Below are positions 16,674 through 29,730 of a DNA stretch of 64,000 nt, piece after piece. A program made the position numbers and the translations under genes. The notes beneath the pieces are model-generated. The model was not told the DNA's origin. It did not search any database and saw nothing but the letters and a program-made list of their open reading frames with translations. Source of the stretch: a bacterium SCSIO 12741 (GTDB lineage: Bacteria; Bacteroidota; Bacteroidia; Flavobacteriales_G; Salibacteraceae); the NCBI GenBank assembly GCA_024398055.1, contig CP073749.1, positions 2,666,594 to 2,730,593 of the forward strand, given 5' to 3'. Each line of letters opens with the position of its first letter. Positions within the stretch are counted from its first letter, which is position 1.

Positions 16674-17699
16674 ATGGATCTGAAAGACAAATCGATATTG
16701 ATTACCGGTGGTACCGGTTCCCTGGGTAAGTGTTTGGTTGATATGTTGCTGGAAAGGTATCCAGACTTAGGGCGTTTGATCATTTTTTCGAGAGATGAGC
16801 TGAAGCAATTTGAAATGGCGCAGCGTTACCCGATGGATAAGTATCCGCAAATGCGCTACTTCTTAGGAGATATTCGCGATCGTGATCGATTGATTCGAGC
16901 CTTTCAGGGAGTAGATTATGTGATTCATGCGGCCGCATTGAAACAAGTTCCAGCAGCGGAATACAATCCGATGGAGTTTGTAAAAACCAATGTACTGGGA
17001 GCAGAAAATATTATTGAGGCAGCCTTGAGCACCAATGTGAAGCGCATTGTAGCCTTGTCTACCGATAAAGCGGCAGCCCCGATCAATTTGTACGGAGCTA
17101 CCAAGCTGGCTTCTGACAAGTTGTTTGTGGCGGCCAATAACATTCGAGGTTGGAGAGATTTACGTTTTTCTGTGGTTCGCTACGGAAATGTAATGGGTTC
17201 CAGAGGTTCGGTGATTCCATTCTTTTTGAAGAAAAGAGCGGAAGGTGTTTTGCCGATTACAGATCCTGAAATGACCCGATTCAATATCACTTTGCAAGAG
17301 GGTGCCGAATTGGTTCTATATGCGCTCGAAGAAGCCTGGGGTGGAGAAATATTTGTTCCCAAAATTCCATCCTTCCGCATTACCGATTTGGCCCAAGCCA
17401 TCGGACCTGAGTGCGAACATCCGGTAGTCGGAATTCGCCCGGGTGAAAAAATTCATGAAGAAATGATCACGCCTTCTGATTCCTACACCACGGTGGACTT
17501 AGGTAAGTATTATGCGATTTTACCTACGTTGACCAATTGGGATATCAAGGAATATCAGGAAGCTACTCAATACAAGGAAGTCGAAAAAGGATTTACCTAC
17601 AACTCCGGAACCAATGATGAATGGTTGACCGTGGAGCAATTGCGTGAAATGATTGACACCTACGTGGCTCCTGGAGAACTGACCAAGAGTAACGCTTAG
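16674..17699 (+). CDS. pseB: UDP-GlcNAc 4,6-dehydratase (inverting), PseB-type
   Basis: First step of pseudaminic acid synthesis: converts UDP-GlcNAc to the 4-keto-6-deoxy-L-arabino sugar. A 341-residue extended SDR. It has the NAD-binding loop ITGGTGSLGK, the catalytic ALSTDKAAAPINLYGATK (Asp-Lys in DK and Tyr of YxxxK), and the family C-terminus VVGIRPGEKIHEEMI. Its length and the PseI, PseG and PseH neighbours support PseB rather than the longer, membrane-bound CapD/WbpM type or a retaining dehydratase. The usual partner PseC, a PLP aminotransferase, is not next to it; a methyltransferase is there instead. Confidence 0.92.
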   Translation: MDLKDKSILITGGTGSLGKCLVDMLLERYPDLGRLIIFSRDELKQFEMAQRYPMDKYPQMRYFLGDIRDRDRLIRAFQGVDYVIHAAALKQVPAAEYNPMEFVKTNVLGAENIIEAALSTNVKRIVALSTDKAAAPINLYGATKLASDKLFVAANNIRGWRDLRFSVVRYGNVMGSRGSVIPFFLKKRAEGVLPITDPEMTRFNITLQEGAELVLYALEEAWGGEIFVPKIPSFRITDLAQAIGPECEHPVVGIRPGEKIHEEMITPSDSYTTVDLGKYYAILPTLTNWDIKEYQEATQYKEVEKGFTYNSGTNDEWLTVEQLREMIDTYVAPGELTKSNA

Positions 17700-17774
17700 C
17701 CTACCCTCAAAGCACTTTCCATCTGGTGATAGAGGAAGACGGTTTCGGATTGGGGTCAAACAAATAGTTGGGTT

Positions 17775-18386
17775 ATGAATATTCACTTATTCAGGATTAA
17801 GCAACTTGTCAAAAAGATGATTGGTCGCCAAGCAACAAGCCCAAAGGATTTTCTTTTGGAGGCCTTGCCCAAAGGATCTGTTGGAGCCGAGATTGGTACC
17901 TGGAAAGGAGCTTTTGCCGATCGAATGCTGACCATTGTTGAGCCCTCTAAATTGTTTTTAATCGATCCATACCAATACATAGAGAGCTATGAAAACGCCT
18001 GGTATGGCAAGCCCATTGGATCTCAATCCAACATGGATGAGATTTACGATTTTGTAGCAGCTCGATTTGCCGGGCCCATTACCAAAGGGCAGGTGGAAAT
18101 GCTTCGAATGACCTCGGACAAAGCGCTGGAAAAGTTTGAAAATGAATCCCTGGACTGGGTTTACATCGACGGTGATCATTCCTATGAATTTGTTAAACGA
18201 GATTTAGATCATTTCTACGCTAAGGTTAAAGTGGGTGGTTGGATCACCGGGGATGATTACCAGGATGGAAACTGGTGGTCGGATGGAGTTCGAAGGGCCG
18301 TGAACGAATTTGTAGAAGAGAAGGGAGAGCTTCTTGAGCTTCAGGAAATAAAAGAGAATCAATTCAGAATCAAAAAAATTGGATAG
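17775..18386 (+). CDS. Class I SAM-dependent methyltransferase
   Basis: A 203-residue protein with a SAM-binding core: motif I GSVGAEIGTWKGAFADRM, the acidic ribose contact FLIDPYQY, and WVYIDGDHSYEFVKRDLD, followed by GGWITGDDY. This pattern matches the Methyltransf_24/TylF-like group, which O-methylates sugars or small molecules. It lies between pseB and the NeuB-cytidylyltransferase fusion, so methylation of a sugar of the surface glycan is likely but unproven. The upstream 75-nt gap shows no clear promoter. Confidence 0.87.
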   Translation: MNIHLFRIKQLVKKMIGRQATSPKDFLLEALPKGSVGAEIGTWKGAFADRMLTIVEPSKLFLIDPYQYIESYENAWYGKPIGSQSNMDEIYDFVAARFAGPITKGQVEMLRMTSDKALEKFENESLDWVYIDGDHSYEFVKRDLDHFYAKVKVGGWITGDDYQDGNWWSDGVRRAVNEFVEEKGELLELQEIKENQFRIKKIG

Positions 18387-18390
18387 TCTG

Positions 18391-20175
18391 ATGAAAAATC
18401 CGGCTTACACGCTGCTGGAAGTAGCCAATACGCACGGGGGAGATCCCGAAAAAGTAATCCAGCTCATTCAGGAATTCGAAGATGTTCAGGAAAACGTGGG
18501 CATCAAGTTTCAGGTACTTAAGGACGATCGTATCGCCCTACCTGATTATTCCTGGTTTGACGTCTACACCAAGTTGTGTTTCTCCGAAGAAGATTGGGGA
18601 AGGCTGATAACCGAAGCCCAGAAAACCAAAGAAGTTTGGTTAGATCTGTTCGACAGCTATGGTACCGAAATTCTGGGAAAGTACCTGGATCAAATTACCG
18701 GCATTAAATTGCAGGCATCCGTGCTTCAAAATCTGGAAATTAGAAAAGGATTGCAACAGTTGGATGTTTCTTCCCTGAAGCTGATTCTCAATGTGGCTGC
18801 CATGGAAGAAGACGAGGTAGAGTCCATTTTACAGGCCTTTGAAGGTCAATTTGGGTTTAAGGAAATCATCCTACAAGTTGGTTTTCAGGCCTATCCTACA
18901 GAATTGGCTGACTCAGGCTTGGGAAAGATTCCTAAACTTCAAGATTTGACAGGTAAAACTATTGCCTTCGCCGACCATGTAGATGCGCAGTCAGAAGACG
19001 CCGTTTGGTTGCCCGTAATGGCTGCTATGCAAGGTGCAGGAATCGTAGAAAAACACATTAGAAGTTCCCATTACGAACCCGAGTACGATGGATTCTCATC
19101 CGTAGGAAAAACTCAGATTCTGAAAATCAGAGAGCAACTTGGACGTTATGGACACTTACTTCAGGAGCCCTTTATTAATGAGCGGGAGCAGAATTACCTG
19201 AAGACCACCCTTCAGATTCCTGTATTGGAAAACAGCAAAGATTCAGGAGATTTAGTTGACTTGGATCGCGATTTGAAATACCGCCGAACCGGCCAAGAAG
19301 GAATTTCCAGAAAAGACATTCAAGAGCACCAGGCCAAGGGAGAAATACTGGCTAAAGATTTGGACGCCGACAGTACCCTAAGCAACGACGTGTGGAGAAA
19401 AGCTAAAGTGGGGGTGATTGTAGCTTGTCGATTGAAATCATCTCGCTTGAAAAGAAAGGCAGTTGAGAAGATTGGTCAGTGGCCATCCGTAGAATACTGC
19501 CTAAAAAATGCCTTGCGATTCAAGGGCGTAGATGAAGTTGTGTTGGCAACCTCCACCGCTGATGAAGATGCCGAGCTCGAGAATCATACCTACTCTGATG
19601 AAGTTCATTTTTTTAAGGGCCATCCTGACGATGTGATTCAACGATTTTTGGATGCTGCCGAGCAACATAGCATTGACGTAATCATCCGGGTTACCGCCGA
19701 TATGCCGTATATCTCTGATGAGATTTTGCAACCCTTGCTCAAAAAGCATTTTGAAACCGGCGCTGATTATACCGTAGGGAAAGATGCGGCAGTAGGAACC
19801 AATTTAGAGATTATCAATACCAGTGCATTGAAGAGGGTGAGAAAACACTTCCCATTTGCCGAGTATTCCGAATACATGACCTGGTATTTTCAGAATAACC
19901 CCGAACACTTTAATCTTCAATTCGTAGAGTTACCTGCCGATTTGGTAAGGCATTACCGACTCACTCTGGATTATCCGGAAGATTTGGACATGTTTAACGC
20001 CATTGAAGAGCGTTTTGCTGAGCATCCTGAGTTTTCCTTGCGGGAATTAATTGACTTCTTGGATCGAACACCAGAAGTTGCTCAAATCAATGCTCACTGC
20101 GCTTTGGTTTATAAAACCGATCAGAGTTTGATCGATACCCTCAATCAAAAAACGCGTATTTCGGTTCATGAATAA
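18391..20175 (+). CDS. NeuB-like / SAF-like / cytidylyltransferase fusion (probable CMP-pseudaminic acid synthetase)
   Basis: A 594-residue fusion. Residues 1-255 resemble the NeuB/PseI TIM barrel: EVANTHGGDPEK, GIKFQVL (PEP-site Lys), FADHVDAQ and VEKHIR. The sequence is divergent: the strand KLQASVLQN takes the place of KIASFEITD, so the conserved catalytic Glu seems to be missing, and AYPTE replaces the CTSSYPAP motif. Residues about 285-330 (EGISRKDIQEHQAKGEILAKDL) look like the SAF/antifreeze-like domain. Residues 338-594 are an SpsF/NeuA-type cytidylyltransferase (GVIVACRLKSSRLKRKAV, VVLATSTADEDAEL, VIIRVTADMPYIS), which would activate the nonulosonic acid with CTP (PseF role). ATG 18391 is preferred over TTG 18379. 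Its end overlaps the pseG-pseH fusion. Confidence 0.82.
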   Translation: MKNPAYTLLEVANTHGGDPEKVIQLIQEFEDVQENVGIKFQVLKDDRIALPDYSWFDVYTKLCFSEEDWGRLITEAQKTKEVWLDLFDSYGTEILGKYLDQITGIKLQASVLQNLEIRKGLQQLDVSSLKLILNVAAMEEDEVESILQAFEGQFGFKEIILQVGFQAYPTELADSGLGKIPKLQDLTGKTIAFADHVDAQSEDAVWLPVMAAMQGAGIVEKHIRSSHYEPEYDGFSSVGKTQILKIREQLGRYGHLLQEPFINEREQNYLKTTLQIPVLENSKDSGDLVDLDRDLKYRRTGQEGISRKDIQEHQAKGEILAKDLDADSTLSNDVWRKAKVGVIVACRLKSSRLKRKAVEKIGQWPSVEYCLKNALRFKGVDEVVLATSTADEDAELENHTYSDEVHFFKGHPDDVIQRFLDAAEQHSIDVIIRVTADMPYISDEILQPLLKKHFETGADYTVGKDAAVGTNLEIINTSALKRVRKHFPFAEYSEYMTWYFQNNPEHFNLQFVELPADLVRHYRLTLDYPEDLDMFNAIEERFAEHPEFSLRELIDFLDRTPEVAQINAHCALVYKTDQSLIDTLNQKTRISVHE

Positions 20176-21613
20176 GCCAAGAATTCTTTTTCAAGTAGAG
20201 GGCGGTGCTCAAACCGGATACGGCCATATTAGCCGTTGTACGGCTCTTGCCGGTTACCTGAAAGAGGATTTCGATTGTCATTTTTTGCTTCCCGTTGAAA
20301 CCCGGGAACGCTTATCGCTTTTCGGAACGGATCAATATCACATTCATTGGACCGAGAATAGTGCTTACTCCTTGGAAGAACTAAAGCTTCTCGCCGTTGA
20401 AGGAGACCTACTGGTGGTAGATGGTTATTCCTACGACCGGGCGTATTTTGAATCACTACGACCCCTCGGTGTAACCTCGGTAAGGATCGATGATTACTAC
20501 CAAGACTATTCGGCCGATGCGATCATTAACCCATCTCCAGCTGCCACACGGGGTAAATATCCGGCTATGCCTTATCGGGCTTATGCCGTGGGAGCCGCTT
20601 ACGCTATGCTGCGTCCCGCCTTTTTTGAGGCTAAACCAGTAGAGGTGGATGCTCGAACTTTACTCGTTTGTTTAGGGGGGAGCGATGCTCGTTTTTCGGC
20701 TCATTTGATTGAAATGCTGCAATCCGTTGGGGGATTTGATCGCATTACCTGGTTGGGATATTTGAGTGAGGATAGTAGAGCGAAACTCGACGAACTGAAC
20801 GAATGGAAGCATGTTGCGCAAGCCAATGCCCATGAAATGGTGAACCTGATGACCCGTCATGAGTACGGTTTATTCTCGGCGGGAACACTTGCCTTAGAAG
20901 CCTGTACGGTAGGGATTCCCATGTTGCTTTTGCAATACGTAGAGAATCAAAAAGAAAACTACCGCAAAATAGTAGAGGAGAAGGCGGCCGTTGGAATTGG
21001 AACTCCTGAAACCCTGGACAGAGAAGTACTTCAAAAATCCTTTGATGAACTCAAGGGGCAGAAACAACAGGTCGAGTTTCAAAAAAAGCTGATGGACGCC
21101 CACCCACCCACCCGATTCAGAAAGCTCTTTAACTACCTCCACCTCACAAAATCAATTACCCTCCGTCAAGCCAGCGAAAAGGACGTAGACCTATTCTACC
21201 AATGGGCAAACGACCCGGATACCCGGCAAAATTCAACCCAATCAGAGCCTATACCTTACCCAACTCATGTATCTTGGTTCGCTTCCAAAATTAGGGATGT
21301 GAATACTCGTATTTACGTCTTTGAGCACCCTGGCGGACCCGTTGGTTACCTGCGTTTGGAACAGCGAGAAGGTCATTGGTTGATTAGTTATGCCATGGAT
21401 CCGGAGTTCAGAGGAAAGGGGCTTGGAAAGTTTTTGATCGGTAGAGGAATGACTGAATTTATAGAGGAGAAACAGGATGCCAGCCTGGTCTTTCATGCCT
21501 GGGTAAAAAAATCGAATTTGGCCTCTGCGGTGACTTTTAAAAACTGCAATTTTGACAATCTAAAAGAGGTGAATCTCGAAGGCGTGACCTACGACATTTT
21601 TATATGGAAGTAA
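20168..21613 (+). CDS. PseG-PseH fusion: UDP-sugar hydrolase plus N-acetyltransferase
   Basis: A 481-residue two-domain enzyme. Residues 1-325 are PseG, a GT-B-like hydrolase that removes UDP from the 2,4-diacetamido-trideoxy-altrose. Its catalytic His is H20 in GAQTGYGHISRC, and the C-terminal half has FSAGTLALEACTVGIPMLLL. Residues about 328-481 are a GNAT domain (SITLRQASEKDVDLFYQW, YAMDPEFRGKGLGKFLIG with the acetyl-CoA loop), matching PseH, which acetylates the 4-amino group just before PseG acts. The fusion thus joins consecutive steps. It overlaps both neighbours by 8-10 nt. Confidence 0.9.
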   Translation: MNKPRILFQVEGGAQTGYGHISRCTALAGYLKEDFDCHFLLPVETRERLSLFGTDQYHIHWTENSAYSLEELKLLAVEGDLLVVDGYSYDRAYFESLRPLGVTSVRIDDYYQDYSADAIINPSPAATRGKYPAMPYRAYAVGAAYAMLRPAFFEAKPVEVDARTLLVCLGGSDARFSAHLIEMLQSVGGFDRITWLGYLSEDSRAKLDELNEWKHVAQANAHEMVNLMTRHEYGLFSAGTLALEACTVGIPMLLLQYVENQKENYRKIVEEKAAVGIGTPETLDREVLQKSFDELKGQKQQVEFQKKLMDAHPPTRFRKLFNYLHLTKSITLRQASEKDVDLFYQWANDPDTRQNSTQSEPIPYPTHVSWFASKIRDVNTRIYVFEHPGGPVGYLRLEQREGHWLISYAMDPEFRGKGLGKFLIGRGMTEFIEEKQDASLVFHAWVKKSNLASAVTFKNCNFDNLKEVNLEGVTYDIFIWK

Positions 21614-22680
21614 CCCACTCAGATATTCGCATTGGACCCGATCGAATTCATGACGATGCTCCCGTTTGGATCATTGCTGAATTATCGGCCAATCATGCTG
21701 GCAGGCTGGATGTAGCACTTGAAACCGTGCGTGCGGCTAAGCGTGCCGGTGCCAATGCCATTAAGCTACAGACCTACCGAGCCGATACCATTACGCTGAA
21801 CGTTAAGAATGAACACTTCAAAATCGATCAAGGTACCGTGTGGGATGGTAGATACCTCTACGATTTGTATGAGGAAGCCCACACACCTTGGGAATGGCAC
21901 AAGGCTTTGTTTGATGAAGCTCAGAAGGAGGGCTTAGTTTGTCTATCCTCGCCCTTCGATCCCACAGCTGTGGATTTGCTCGAAGAGTTGAATTGTCCAG
22001 CCTACAAAATTGCGTCCTTCGAGATTACCGATATTCCGTTGATTGAATACGTGGCCTCGAAGGGAAAGCCCGTCATCATTTCCACCGGCATTGCCGATGA
22101 TCAGGATATTCAACGAGCCTTGGAGGCGTGTAAAAAGCAGGGTAATCATCAGATCGTTTTGTTGAAATGCACCTCCTCCTATCCCGCTCCCATCGAAAAG
22201 GCCAACTTGGCTATGATCCCCGATATGAGAAATCGTTTTGGGGTGCTAACCGGTCTCTCCGATCATACCTTGGGTACAGCGGTTCCTGTGGTTGCCACTT
22301 CACTGGGTGCACGGGTAATTGAAAAGCATTTTATCCTCGACAAAAATCTGGGTGGACCCGATGCCGGATTTTCGCTCGATGAGCAGGAATTTTCCGAAAT
22401 GGTCAAAGCCGTAAGGCTGGCCGAAAGTGCATTGGGCAAGGTAGATTACTCCCTGGATGAGGGAAAAATAAATAGCCGGGCATTTAGCCGATCGCTCTTT
22501 GTAACCCGCCGGGTAGAAGCAGGCGAAACCATTGGTCCGGAAAATATCAAATCCGTTCGTCCCGGGTACGGGATGCATCCCAGGTATTGGGATGTTTTGA
22601 TCGGAAAGAAATTTAATACAGCCGTGGAGGCAGGAACTCCGCTTAAGGCTGAAATGGTAGAAGGATTTAGAGAAGAATGA
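21604..22680 (+). CDS. pseI: Pseudaminic acid synthase
   Basis: Condenses 6-deoxy-AltdiNAc with phosphoenolpyruvate to form pseudaminic acid. The protein has 358 residues. The NeuB barrel has ELSANHAGRLDVAL, AIKLQTYRADTITL, LYEEAHTPWEWHK, KIASFEITDIPLIE (catalytic Glu), CTSSYPAP, GLSDHTLGTAVP and VIEKHF. The C-terminal SAF domain has RSLFVTRRVEAGETI and GMHPRYWD. The HTPWEWHK stretch and TITLNVKNEHFKI are typical of PseI rather than NeuB or LegI. It overlaps the preceding fusion by 10 nt and the hisH-like gene by ATGA. Confidence 0.95.
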   Translation: MEVTHSDIRIGPDRIHDDAPVWIIAELSANHAGRLDVALETVRAAKRAGANAIKLQTYRADTITLNVKNEHFKIDQGTVWDGRYLYDLYEEAHTPWEWHKALFDEAQKEGLVCLSSPFDPTAVDLLEELNCPAYKIASFEITDIPLIEYVASKGKPVIISTGIADDQDIQRALEACKKQGNHQIVLLKCTSSYPAPIEKANLAMIPDMRNRFGVLTGLSDHTLGTAVPVVATSLGARVIEKHFILDKNLGGPDAGFSLDEQEFSEMVKAVRLAESALGKVDYSLDEGKINSRAFSRSLFVTRRVEAGETIGPENIKSVRPGYGMHPRYWDVLIGKKFNTAVEAGTPLKAEMVEGFREE

Positions 22681-23288
22681 TCGGAATTATCAATTATGGA
22701 ATGGGCAATTTGGCCTCCGTCCTCAATGGCTTAAAAGCTTTGGAATTGGATGCCGAGATTGTGGACAACCCAAATGATCTTGATCGATACGAGCGGTTGA
22801 TCCTTCCTGGTGTTGGGGCTTTTAAGCAGGCCATGGATAATTTACGAGAATCCGGATTCAAAACAGCCCTAGATGCTATTGTGGAGAAAGGCGATAAACC
22901 TTTGTTGGGAATTTGCCTGGGCATGCAATTGCTTTTTGAGAAAAGCTTCGAACATGGCGAAAACACCGGATTAGGCTACATTCCGGGTGAGGTACTTCCC
23001 TTCGGAGATCAGGTGAAAAATCACCGGATTCCTCATGTGGGGTGGAACACCGTTTACCCCCAATCCGGTTCTCGATTACTTCCTGAACAAGCCGAAGACT
23101 TTTACTTCGTTCATTCCTTTTACTGCCACCCGACCGGGGATGAAGAGCAAAAAGGAATGACCGAATACGAAATAAAATTTTGCTCAGTAGTGGAGCATGG
23201 TCAGGTATTTGGGGCCCAATTTCACCCCGAAAAAAGCCAGAAACACGGACTTCAATTGCTAAAAAAATTCGCCGAACTTCCATGCTGA
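22677..23288 (+). CDS. hisH: HisH-like glutamine amidotransferase subunit
   Basis: A class I glutaminase of 203 residues that releases ammonia from glutamine. The nucleophile elbow is GICLGMQLLFE, and the triad is completed by FHPEKSQKHG. The N-terminus IGIINYGMGNLASV is standard for HisH. No histidine-biosynthesis genes lie nearby. Its position between pseI and the HisF-like and sugar amidotransferase genes indicates that it supplies ammonia for an acetamidino group on a nonulosonic acid, as HisH2 does with HisF2 and WbpG in P. aeruginosa B-band LPS. Coupled to pseI by ATGA. Confidence 0.92.
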   Translation: MIGIINYGMGNLASVLNGLKALELDAEIVDNPNDLDRYERLILPGVGAFKQAMDNLRESGFKTALDAIVEKGDKPLLGICLGMQLLFEKSFEHGENTGLGYIPGEVLPFGDQVKNHRIPHVGWNTVYPQSGSRLLPEQAEDFYFVHSFYCHPTGDEEQKGMTEYEIKFCSVVEHGQVFGAQFHPEKSQKHGLQLLKKFAELPC

Positions 23289-24070
23289 AAAAACGACTGA
23301 TACCGGCTCTTTTTATCAAAAATGGACTTATTGTTAGAAGTGAGAATTTCGACTATCACCAGTTCATTGGAAGCGTGGTGCATGAGGCGAAACGCTACAG
23401 TGATTGGGACGTAGACGAGCTGGTTTACATCGACATCAGCCGGGAAAAGGAGTACGATCTCCGTCGTGATGATTACAACCTGGATGCTTACTATAGCATG
23501 GAAGAAATCATTCGGAAAATTGCTGAGGTTTGTTTTATGCCCTTAGCCTTTGGTGGTGGAATCCGAAACCTATCCGATGTGGATTTGAGAATTCGCAACG
23601 GAGCTGATAAAATTATTCTGAATACCGGTGCCTACGAAACTCCCGAACTGATTGGGCAAACAGCCTCCAAATACGGATCGCAATGTGTGATCGTTTCGGT
23701 CGATTACCGCATGGTAGATGGAAAGGATCAGGTTTTTACCTCCTTCGGAACTCATGCCACCGGATTGACCGTAAACGAATGGATCAGTCGCTGTGAGCAG
23801 GAAGGGGCGGGTGAAATCTTTTTGAATGCCATTGATCGAGATGGAAAGGGCAATGGATATGATATTGAAACCATCGAATCTGCGGTGGAAAGCACCAAAT
23901 TGCCCGTGATAGCATGTGGCGGTGCAGCCGACGAATTTGATTTTCAGGAGTTGGCCGAAGAAGTAGAAAACCTTTCAGGAATTGCAGCAGGAAATCTCTT
24001 TCATTTTACTGAAAGAAGTTATCCGAGAGCCAAGAAATACCTGAAGGAAAATGGAATTAACGTACGATAA
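23282..24070 (+). CDS. hisF: HisF-like ammonia-channelling subunit for sugar amidation
   Basis: A 262-residue TIM barrel of the HisF family. ATG 23282 (MLKKRLIPALFIKNG) overlaps the hisH stop by 7 nt; the longer ORF start at 23180 lies inside hisH. In true HisF the first strand reads IPCLD, with a catalytic Asp; here it is IPALFIKNG, so that Asp is lost. The second half keeps VIVSVDYRM and LNAIDRDGKGNGYD and the phosphate-site loop VIACGGAA. This pattern fits HisF2-type proteins, which serve as ammonia conduits for an N-acetyl sugar amidotransferase and do not make imidazole glycerol phosphate. Confidence 0.9.
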   Translation: MLKKRLIPALFIKNGLIVRSENFDYHQFIGSVVHEAKRYSDWDVDELVYIDISREKEYDLRRDDYNLDAYYSMEEIIRKIAEVCFMPLAFGGGIRNLSDVDLRIRNGADKIILNTGAYETPELIGQTASKYGSQCVIVSVDYRMVDGKDQVFTSFGTHATGLTVNEWISRCEQEGAGEIFLNAIDRDGKGNGYDIETIESAVESTKLPVIACGGAADEFDFQELAEEVENLSGIAAGNLFHFTERSYPRAKKYLKENGINVR

Positions 24071-24082
24071 ACGAAGAAATAG

Positions 24083-25297
24083 ATGATTGCAACAATCCCT
24101 CAAATCAATTACTGCAAAAAATGTCTTTTGCCTTCCAGCTCCGCCATTCCTGTGGCTTTTGATGATCATGGAGTATGTTCGGCCTGTAGAACCTCCAAGG
24201 AGAAGGAAGCCATTGATTGGGACAGACGATTGAAAAAATTTCAACGCATTCTGGAGCAATACCGAAGCAAGGATGGAAGCAATTACGATTGCATTATTCC
24301 CGTGAGTGGAGGGAAAGACAGCTTCTTCCAGGTTCATCAGGTAAAAAATGAGATGGGATTCAATCCTTTGCTGGTGACCTACAACAGCAACAACTACACT
24401 CCTACTGGACTTAAAAACCTTCAGCGGATGAGGGACGTTTTCGGTTGTGATCATGTCTTTTTCACTACCAGTGTGCATACCCTTCAAAAGCTCAATCGGA
24501 TTTCGGTTCAAATCATGGGTGATACACAATGGCATTACCAAAGTGGGATTTTTACCTATCCCTTTCAGGTAGCTGTACAGATGAATATTCCACTGCTGAT
24601 TTGGGGAGAGCACGGCCACATGGATATTGGAGGAATGCACTCTTACAATGATTTCGTTGAGTTTACTTATCGCTATCGTCACGAACACATTTTACGTGGC
24701 TTTGAGTGGACCGATTTTATGGCAAAGGCTGCCGAGTACGGCGAGACCCTTGAACGCCGTGAAATGATTCCATTTGTATACCCAAGCGATGAAGAAATTG
24801 ATCGGGTAGGGGTTAGAGGTATCTACATGGCCAACTTCGTTAAGTGGGAGGCCAACGAACACGGCCCTCTGATGATGGAAAAATATGGCTGGTTAGAAAA
24901 CGAAGAGCCTTTTGAAAGAACCTACCGTCGTATGTCGAACCTCGACGATTTCTACGAAAACGGAATTCACGACTACCTCAAGTTTATCAAGTTTGGTTAC
25001 GGTCGGGCAACCGATCACGCCTGTAAGGATATCCGGGCTGGAAAAATGACCCGTGAAGAGGGCATCAAGATCATTCAGCAGATGGACCATGTGAAAAGCA
25101 AGGACGTTTATCAATGGCTTGACTTTGTTGGCTGGACCGAAGAACAATTCGATCATTTGGCCGATACTTACCGCGATCCAAGAGTATGGTGGATACGAGA
25201 TGGGCAATGGCACAAGATGGATATTACCGGAGAACCAACGGCCTATGGTAAAGTTCATTTGACTCCCGAAGAGCAACAGAAATACGTTAGAGCTTAA
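24083..25297 (+). CDS. N-acetyl sugar amidotransferase (WbpG/PseA family)
   Basis: A 404-residue PP-loop ATPase that converts an N-acetyl group on a sugar into an acetamidino group, using ammonia from the HisH/HisF pair. The N-terminal zinc-ribbon-like cysteines are CKKCLLPSS and GVCSACR. The pyrophosphate loop is IIPVSGGKDSFFQVHQ. Other conserved stretches are LLIWGEHGHMDIGGM and KFGYGRATDHACKDIR. In this setting the substrate is probably pseudaminic acid or its precursor (PseA role, giving a Pse5Ac7Am-type sugar). A legionaminic or mannuronic substrate is less likely because PseI and PseB are present. Ends with TAATG coupling to the next gene. Confidence 0.9.
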   Translation: MIATIPQINYCKKCLLPSSSAIPVAFDDHGVCSACRTSKEKEAIDWDRRLKKFQRILEQYRSKDGSNYDCIIPVSGGKDSFFQVHQVKNEMGFNPLLVTYNSNNYTPTGLKNLQRMRDVFGCDHVFFTTSVHTLQKLNRISVQIMGDTQWHYQSGIFTYPFQVAVQMNIPLLIWGEHGHMDIGGMHSYNDFVEFTYRYRHEHILRGFEWTDFMAKAAEYGETLERREMIPFVYPSDEEIDRVGVRGIYMANFVKWEANEHGPLMMEKYGWLENEEPFERTYRRMSNLDDFYENGIHDYLKFIKFGYGRATDHACKDIRAGKMTREEGIKIIQQMDHVKSKDVYQWLDFVGWTEEQFDHLADTYRDPRVWWIRDGQWHKMDITGEPTAYGKVHLTPEEQQKYVRA

Positions 25298-28796: not shown

Positions 28797-29730
28797 ATGA
28801 AACAAAAACTGCTTGGAATCTATCTTGCTGTTCACCGCCTTTTTAGAACAGCTATTCCTTACAAATCGAATCAGGCCTTTTTTCTATTCGGTTTTCCCCG
28901 GGGTGGAACCACCTGGATTTCGGAAGTACTTTCCAATGATTCCAAAACAGTGGTCGTTTATGAGCCTTTAGGAGCTTATTTAAAGCCGATCGTTGAAATG
29001 GGATACCGTCGGTTCGAAAAGCCGAAAACGGCCCCGCAAATGCGCCTGGTGACCTATTTTAATTCGTTGGTCAAGGGACGGGCATTCATGCCGGAGTGCT
29101 GTTGAAGAAAGATTCTCGTAAAGTTTTTCAATCTACCCGGGTGTTGATCAAGTTTATCAAAGGCATGCAACTCGTAGATTGGTTTTGCTCGCATTTCTCT
29201 CCGGAAAGCACCTTGATTATTCTCCGACATCCTGGGGCAGTGGTGTCTTCTCAACTGCTTTACATGAAAGGGAAAGAGGCTCAGTTTTTTCACCATTCCA
29301 TTCATGCCCGCAACCATCGGAGGCCGGTTACGCTAATCCACAAGGGGAAGAATTGGTACTTTCTACGGCTGTCGAGAAGTTGGCCTACACCTACGCTATT
29401 GGAGCAGAAGAAGCCTTAAAGGCCATCCGCAATTACCCGAATGTAAACTGGTTGGTGTACGAAGAAATGGTGTTGAATCCAGAAAAAACCATGACCGATT
29501 TACAGGGTAAGCTCGAATTGCCATTTTCCTTTGATTCGTCTACGCTCAAGCGTCCAAGTTCCACGGTTACGGCCAATTCTGCGGTTCAATCCGGGAATAG
29601 TCAATTGGAAAAATGGAAACAACATCTCAACGAGGAAGACTGGAAATCCATTCAAAGAGTATTGGCTGCTTTTGATTTGGATCAGTTATACCTCAATCCA
29701 CAAACCTTTAATCACAAAATGGTACGGTGA
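28797..29730 (+). pseudogene. Sulfotransferase, disrupted by two apparent one-base losses
   Basis: Three overlapping frames together make one sulfotransferase of about 311 residues. Frame A (28797 to about 29090) has the PAPS loop FFLFGFPRGGTTWISEVL and ends in an early stop at 29103. Frame B (about 29090-29300) continues with VFQSTRVLIKFIKG and the 3'-phosphate motif TLIILRHPGAVVSSQLL. Frame C (about 29300-29730) gives TAVEKLAYTYAIGAEEAL and VNWLVYEEMVLNPEKTM. Each switch is a -1 step, so each needs one added base. The first lies between 29075 and 29095 (two GGG runs), the second between 29268 and 29327; neither could be placed exactly. It may be a real pseudogene or a consensus error. GTGA overlap with the next gene. 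Confidence 0.85.

What the first reader, a model, noticed from the sequence alone, without database searches (positions are those of the whole stretch)
18391..20175. NeuB-like / SAF-like / cytidylyltransferase triple fusion with a decayed synthase active site
The N-terminal barrel keeps the PEP-site Lys and the DH and EKH motifs but has KLQASVLQN where active synthases have KIASFE, so the conserved Glu seems lost, and it lacks the CTSSYP motif. A full PseI is encoded two genes later. The first barrel could be a product-binding or channelling module for the fused CMP transferase, or a synthase with changed chemistry.
Basis: partly seen in the sequence, partly recalled or inferred. Interest (0 to 1): 0.65.

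Follow-up and report, generated by a model that had tools for sequence, protein, structure and literature searches.

The report
Non-synthase NeuB fused to CMP-transferase
This gene joins the enzyme that activates a bacterial sialic-acid-like sugar to a look-alike of the enzyme that builds that sugar; the look-alike half has exchanged its phosphoenolpyruvate-binding residues for a different, strictly conserved set, so it is not a dead copy and probably handles or reshapes the finished sugar.

Summary
ORF 18391-20175 encodes a NeuB-type barrel, a SAF-like domain and an SpsF-type cytidylyltransferase, and the canonical Glu is gone (KLQASVLQN). "Decayed" is wrong. Over 30 relatives (41-52% identical; Bacteroidota, Firmicutes, Proteobacteria, a cyanobacterium, Brocadia) share the invariant replacement K-x-Q-x-S-x-L-x-N. 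They also share T110->D, N/S184->Q and S213->A (NmNeuB numbering), yet keep both metal His, E25, K53, Q55, K129, Y186, D247 and SAF Arg314. Canonical synthases in the same clusters keep the PEP-site residues. The gene takes PseF's place: 27 of 29 carrier genomes have a true PseI, none has PseF over cut-off. Unfused sister proteins lie beside an SpsF-type gene in all 10 cases found, and a tree splits fusion plus sisters from true synthases (100/94). Best reading: the C-half is the CMP-pseudaminate synthetase; the N-half is an old NeuB paralogue that no longer condenses PEP but binds, and perhaps tailors, the nonulosonate. A C4 epimerase is an untested possibility: Fusobacterium nucleatum ssp. 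nucleatum has a published NeuB-CTP fusion and makes a C4-epimeric (L-gluco) nonulosonate. The architecture was noted before; I found no paper on the altered, conserved active site.

The parts
18391..20175 (+). Fusion ORF, 594 aa: NeuB-like barrel + SAF-like domain + SpsF-type cytidylyltransferase
18391..19170 (+). NeuB-like barrel, residues 1-260 (PF03102, 36 bits)
19180..19395 (+). SAF-like domain, residues about 264-335, with Arg299 in the place of NmNeuB Arg314
   Evidence: by fold and alignment; no Pfam SAF match
19402..20121 (+). SpsF-type cytidylyltransferase, residues about 338-577 (PF02348, 84 bits; 6oew Z 28.7)
18643..18645 (+). Asp85, invariant in the family, at the Thr110 position of NmNeuB
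18706..18732 (+). KLQASVLQN (residues 106-114): K, Q, S, L, N invariant; Val111 at the Glu134 position
18880..18900 (+). GFQAYPT (residues 164-170), counterpart of CTSSYPA; Gln166 at the Asn184 position, Tyr168 = Tyr186
18973..18978 (+). Asp195-His196; His196 = first metal ligand (NmNeuB His215)
19048..19056 (+). EKH (residues 220-222); His222 = second metal ligand (NmNeuB His236)
16674..17699 (+). PseB (TIGR03589, 519 bits, over cut-off)
17775..18386 (+). Methyltransferase (PF13578) between PseB and the fusion, where relatives often have PseC
20168..21613 (+). PseG-PseH fusion (TIGR03590 126 bits, slightly under cut-off, plus a GNAT domain)
21604..22680 (+). PseI, canonical pseudaminic acid synthase with intact KIASFE, CTSSYP, SDH and EKH

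Best explanation
This is a two-part enzyme of a pseudaminic-acid-type pathway. The C-terminal half is an SpsF-type cytidylyltransferase that does the job of PseF, making the CMP-activated nonulosonate. The N-terminal half is an ancient NeuB paralogue that no longer condenses PEP with a sugar; the separate PseI does that. It keeps the metal site and the sugar-side residues but has replaced PEP-side residues with a new invariant set. Most likely it binds the finished nonulosonate, which carries no phosphate, and presents it to, or chemically tailors it for, the fused transferase. Shown here: architecture, conservation, co-occurrence with PseI, absence of PseF, and linkage of this barrel type to SpsF-type genes. 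Inferred: CMP-transfer activity, loss of PEP binding, the identity of the ligand, and any tailoring reaction.
For: Of 29 carrier genomes, 27 have a true PseI over cut-off (the other two are fragmentary assemblies) and none has PseF over cut-off. Synteny is PseB-PseC-fusion-PseG/H-PseI. In Bacteroidota many PseI genomes lack PseF and carry an SpsF-type gene on the same contig. The barrel has lost Thr110, Glu134, Asn184 and Ser213 in favour of invariant Asp, Val/Ile, Gln and Ala, and keeps E25, K53, Q55, K129, Y186, H215, H236, D247 and R314. Pocket conservation is strongly enriched. Unfused sisters are adjacent to an SpsF-type gene in 10 of 10 cases. Fusion plus sisters form one side of a branch against canonical synthases, support 100/94. 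SpsF-type domains are known to partner a tailoring domain: EpaA (PMC12053666). B. subtilis spsF is required for legionaminic acid transfer (PMC7439481).
Against: No biochemistry. Many Pse clusters use SpsF without the barrel (L102, L103; Priestia plasmid), so the barrel is not needed for CMP transfer as such. Three changed positions lie next to kept Lys53 and Lys129, so some PEP binding cannot be excluded. A new acid, Asp85, sits on the neighbouring strand and might replace Glu134; distances could not be measured because coordinates are not exposed.
Confidence: 0.65

Rival explanations
1. The barrel is a C4 epimerase of nonulosonates (a special case of the best explanation). It opens the C3-C4 bond of the PseI product by a metal-assisted retro-aldol step, keeps the pyruvate enolate bound, re-adds it to the other face of the aldehyde, and hands the 4-epimer to the fused CMP-transferase.
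For: F. nucleatum ssp. nucleatum has a NeuB (FN1684) plus a NeuB/CTP_transf_3 fusion (FN1686) (PMC4045943); strains ATCC 25586 and ATCC 23726 have L-gluco nonulosonates, which differ from the L-manno of Pse only at C4, the centre set by the synthase step. Ssp. polymorphum, listed without such a fusion, has Neu5Ac. Metal ligands and both Lys are invariant. SpsF-type enzymes partner another epimerising set, EpaA/EpaB. Precedent from general knowledge: L-ribulose-5-phosphate 4-epimerase uses a retro-aldol step.
Against: No carrier found here has a known nonulosonate structure. The correlation rests on one subspecies; the configuration in ATCC 25586 is called tentative in PMC13014188.
Confidence: 0.18
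2. The barrel is a catalytically silent docking or product-binding module. By the NeuB-type domain-swapped SAF contact it pairs with PseI or with itself and channels Pse to the cytidylyltransferase (a special case of the best explanation).
For: The complete NeuB fold with SAF and Arg314 is kept, the Glu and PEP-side residues are changed, PseI is nearly always encoded nearby, and L067 carries the halves as two ORFs.
Against: Invariance of metal His, both Lys, Asp233 and new polar residues over phyla is more than a scaffold needs; SpsF works without the barrel in related clusters.
Confidence: 0.32
3. The barrel is still a PEP-using synthase with changed stereochemistry or substrate, so the protein is a bifunctional synthase/CMP-transferase, as FN1686 has been read.
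For: Metal site, Lys53, Lys129, Glu25 and Arg314 are kept. Canonical NeuB-SpsF fusions may exist elsewhere: L107. FN1686 is listed as NeuB/NeuA (PMC4045943).
Against: PseI is always co-encoded where the assembly allows a check. Thr110, Asn184, Ser213 and Glu134 are all replaced, with a negative Asp in the PEP pocket. TIGR03586 and TIGR03569 score 27 and 35 bits against cut-offs of 340 and 400.
Confidence: 0.12
4. The barrel is a decaying relic of a synthase.
For: The conserved Glu is lost.
Against: Conserved replacement motif and pocket in 26 barrels from several phyla; open frame in the full-length fused relatives.
Confidence: 0.03

Closest known systems
PseI / NeuB / LegI synthases (PF03102; NmNeuB 1xuu, C. 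jejuni PseI 8h2c)
   Same: Whole barrel plus SAF fold, two metal His, E25, K53, Q55, K129, Y186, D247, R314
   Different: Thr110, Glu134, Asn/Ser184 and Ser213 replaced by invariant Asp, Val/Ile, Gln, Ala; far below the equivalog cut-offs; always beside a true PseI
3g8r, SpsE-like protein of Chromobacterium violaceum
   Same: NeuB fold (best Z, 29.1) and no Glu at position 134 (Ser)
   Different: Keeps KIAS, Thr110 and Ser213; no fused transferase; on the synthase side of the tree
SpsF of B. subtilis and SpsF-type enzymes of Pse clusters
   Same: C-half family and pathway position
   Different: No NeuB-like extension
EpaA of Acinetobacter baumannii prophages (CTP_transf_3 + aldo-keto reductase, 8-epi-Pse)
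   Same: A PF02348 cytidylyltransferase domain fused to a second domain in Pse metabolism
   Different: The partner is an AKR at the C-terminus, not a NeuB-like barrel at the N-terminus
FN1686 of Fusobacterium nucleatum ssp. nucleatum (NeuB + CTP transferase 3)
   Same: NeuB plus CTP_transf_3 in one protein, beside a separate NeuB
   Different: Sequence not available here, so the state of its active site is unknown; it was read as an ordinary NeuB/NeuA

Membership tests
PseI/NeuB nonulosonate synthase | NeuB fold with C-terminal SAF | tested here: met
   Residues 1-336 against 1xuu, 2wqp, 8h2c: Z 26-29 over 316-320 residues; PF03102 36.2 bits over the cut-off of 22.1
PseI/NeuB nonulosonate synthase | Equivalog scores for PseI (TIGR03586) or NeuB (TIGR03569) | tested here: not met
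   27.4 and 34.5 bits against 340 and 400
PseI/NeuB nonulosonate synthase | Two metal-binding His (H215, H236) and Arg314 | tested here: met
   Invariant in 26 fusion barrels
PseI/NeuB nonulosonate synthase | Conserved acid at position 134 (KIxSxE/D) | tested here: not met
   Val or Ile in all 26 fusion barrels
PseI/NeuB nonulosonate synthase | PEP-side residues Thr/Ser110 and Ser213 | tested here: not met
   Asp in 26 of 26; Ala in 25 of 26, Thr in one
PseI/NeuB nonulosonate synthase | PEP-dependent condensation activity | not testable with these tools
   Needs an enzyme assay
SpsF-type CTP_transf_3 cytidylyltransferase | PF02348 over cut-off and matching fold | tested here: met
   83.6 bits against 22.6; 6oew Z 28.7
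SpsF-type CTP_transf_3 cytidylyltransferase | Nucleotide-site residues intact | tested here: met
   R347, K349, R352, K356, D437, D527, D531 invariant in the alignment; that these are the CTP/Mg site is recalled from KdsB/NeuA
PseF (TIGR03584) | Equivalog score | tested here: not met
   No match over cut-off in any of 29 carrier genomes, the window genome included; its only hit, 40 bits, lies elsewhere
EpaA (CTP_transf_3 + AKR) | C-terminal Aldo_ket_red domain | tested here: not met
   No AKR in the window protein; present only in the Schinkia relative

The most novel reading that the evidence does not exclude
The barrel is a NeuB-fold C4 epimerase: it converts the PseI product to its 4-epimer by retro-aldol and re-addition, then passes it to the fused CMP-transferase. 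That would explain how fusaminic-type, and perhaps 4-epilegionaminic, acids are made.
Probability: 0.18. Interest if true: 0.8.

Novelty: new variant of a known kind. Interest (0 to 1): 0.5.

Why it matters
NeuB-family proteins are routinely annotated as nonulosonate synthases. Here is a conserved clade that very probably is not one, tied to the activating enzyme in several phyla and in a viral contig. Pathway predictions that count such a protein as 'the synthase', or as a plain NeuB/NeuA bifunctional enzyme, would be wrong. It also offers a concrete candidate for the enzyme behind C4-epimeric nonulosonic acids, for which I found no assigned gene in the papers searched.

Tried and rejected
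Relic of a synthase: rejected on conservation. 'CTSSYP missing': corrected to a GFQAYPT counterpart. The idea that the barrel makes up for missing PseG or PseC: some flavobacterial carriers lack both, but many other carriers have both with the same barrel, so this fails as a general role. One literature query and one in-paper query failed for a forbidden slash; the in-paper query was repeated in another form, the literature query was not. Structure coordinates are not exposed, so no pocket distances were measured. The phage collection gave one C-half-only hit and the plasmid collection no hit covering 80% of the protein.

Full report
What is there. The reported ORF is intact (18391-20175, 594 aa). 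Pfam finds a weak NeuB domain and a clear CTP_transf_3 domain. AlphaFold2 on an alignment of 27 relatives gives a confident model (pLDDT 92.3). Its residues 1-336 match whole NeuB chains, SAF domain included (Z about 29 to 3g8r, 1xuu, 2wqp), and residues 337-577 match the Leptospira cytidylyltransferase 6oew (Z 28.7). The cluster is PseB, methyltransferase, fusion, PseG-PseH fusion, PseI, HisH, HisF/WbuZ, WbuX, a polysialyltransferase-like glycosyltransferase and PhyH.

Is the active site decayed? No. One scan of genome contigs gave 31 loci with relatives, mostly full length and 41-52% identical, from Flavobacteriales, other Bacteroidota, Firmicutes, beta- and alphaproteobacteria, a cyanobacterium and a Brocadia MAG. 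Two more came from a Bacteroidota sample. Aligned with NmNeuB, C. jejuni PseI, B. subtilis SpsE and canonical synthases from the same kind of locus, all 26 fusion barrels have Asp at the Thr110 position, Val or Ile at Glu134, Gln at Asn184 and (25 of 26) Ala at Ser213. They keep E25, K53, Q55, K129, Y186, H215, E234, H236, D247 and R314. The PseI and Leg/Neu-type synthases in that alignment all keep Thr/Ser110, Ser132, Glu or Asp134 and Ser213. Of 18 mapped pocket positions 14 are invariant, against 56 of 335 in the whole domain (hypergeometric p about 5e-9). New invariant residues D85, Q108, S110, N114 and Q166 lie in or beside the same pocket positions. This is a rebuilt pocket, not a ruin. 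That the replaced residues contact PEP rests partly on a published list of NmNeuB site residues (PMC6795526) and partly on general knowledge of the family.

Where it sits in the pathway. Of 29 carrier genomes, 27 hold a PseI over its curated cut-off; the other two assemblies are fragmentary. None has a PseF over cut-off. The usual order is PseB-PseC-fusion-PseG/PseH-PseI. In a sample of 395 Bacteroidota genomes, 56 have PseI and 22 have PseF; by my count from the two lists 17 have both, and most of the rest have an SpsF-type hit on the same contig as PseI. SpsF-type enzymes thus stand in for PseF in many Pse clusters, as PMC7371886 proposed for one Vibrio. B. subtilis spsF is needed for legionaminic acid transfer (PMC7439481). 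The C-half is therefore very probably the CMP-nonulosonate synthetase. The fusion itself is rare: 3 of 395 Bacteroidota genomes, the window's own included, and only the seed genome among 398 of Geosporobacter's phylum.

A wider family. Standalone NeuB-like proteins related to this barrel (most with G-F-Q-x-[YF]-P) lie immediately beside an SpsF-type gene in legionaminate-type loci with PtmE, in one Pse-type locus and in one viral contig: ten of ten cases found (L095, L096, L099, L100, L101, L125, L127-L130). L127, L129 and L130 look closely related, so these are not ten independent cases. L096 is an intermediate that keeps Lys129, an Asp at 134 and Ser213. L098 is a second, more distant fusion. 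In the loci L095, L096 and L098-L101 a canonical synthase is also present. In a maximum-likelihood tree the fusion barrels form one clade (100/100), and fusion plus sisters are split from all canonical synthases and 3g8r (100/94); several branches are long, so the finer order is unsure. L067 carries the two halves as two ORFs.

How it most likely works. PseI makes the nonulosonate. The barrel, with its metal and sugar side kept but its PEP side changed, binds that product, and the SpsF half activates it. Whether the barrel also changes the sugar is open. Two points favour chemistry over pure binding: the strict conservation of metal and charged residues, and the habit of SpsF-type domains of carrying tailoring partners. 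EpaA is CTP_transf_3 plus aldo-keto reductase and, with the dehydrogenase EpaB, converts Pse to 8-epi-Pse (PMC12053666). Adhaeribacter has an AKR and an SDR next to the fusion, Schinkia has NeuB-like, SpsF and AKR in one chain, and a Priestia plasmid has SpsF-AKR-SDR in a Pse cluster without the barrel.

The most novel reading. F. nucleatum ssp. nucleatum has a NeuB (FN1684) and a NeuB/CTP_transf_3 fusion (FN1686), listed in 2014 under CMP-Neu5Ac synthesis (PMC4045943). Strains ATCC 25586 and ATCC 23726 have L-gluco nonulosonic acids, the first called fusaminic acid. L-gluco differs from the L-manno of Pse only at C4, the centre formed in the synthase step. That is my derivation from the configurational prefixes; the same rule gives 4-epilegionaminic acid as D-talo, as published. 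A NeuB-fold retro-aldol C4 epimerase would fit. I could not obtain the FN1686 sequence, so this remains a hypothesis (about 0.18).

Verdict. A real, conserved protein that automatic annotation would misname. The architecture was noted before. The altered, conserved active site, the link of this NeuB clade to SpsF and the PseF replacement by this fusion were not found in the papers searched. New variant of a known kind; interest about 0.5.

Noticed in passing
16674-25297: The cluster lacks PseC: no DegT-family aminotransferase lies in the window, and the best genome-wide PseC match is 290 bits (cut-off 423) about 2.6 Mb away, although PseG-PseH, PseI and the WbuX/HisH/HisF acetamidino genes are present.
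   Followed up: partly
L042, L043, L045-L047, L050-L052, L054-L056: A group of flavobacterial MAG carriers has no recognisable PseG and no PseC over cut-off in the genome; the cluster is PseB, fusion, sometimes a GDSL hydrolase, a double-GNAT protein and PseI.
   Followed up: partly
L059 9791-12460: Schinkia azotoformans has NeuB-like, SpsF and aldo-keto reductase in one 890-aa ORF, which looks like an EpaA with the barrel added.
   Followed up: partly
L106 10723-12768 (also L012, L016, L019): SpsF-type cytidylyltransferase fused to a class III-type aminotransferase in a 682-aa ORF next to an AKR gene in a Pse cluster; possibly another tailoring pair.
   Followed up: no
L107 7812-9611: A 600-aa ORF that seems to fuse a canonical-looking NeuB/PseI domain to an SpsF domain, with another SpsF-type gene nearby.
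   Followed up: no
L125 8992-10780: A viral contig (IMG/VR) carries an unfused NeuB-like/SpsF pair plus further NeuB-type genes and an asparagine-synthase-like gene.
   Followed up: partly
28797-29730: A sulfotransferase-like gene appears split over short overlapping ORFs in different frames (102, 107 and 183 aa), possibly a frameshift.
   Followed up: no
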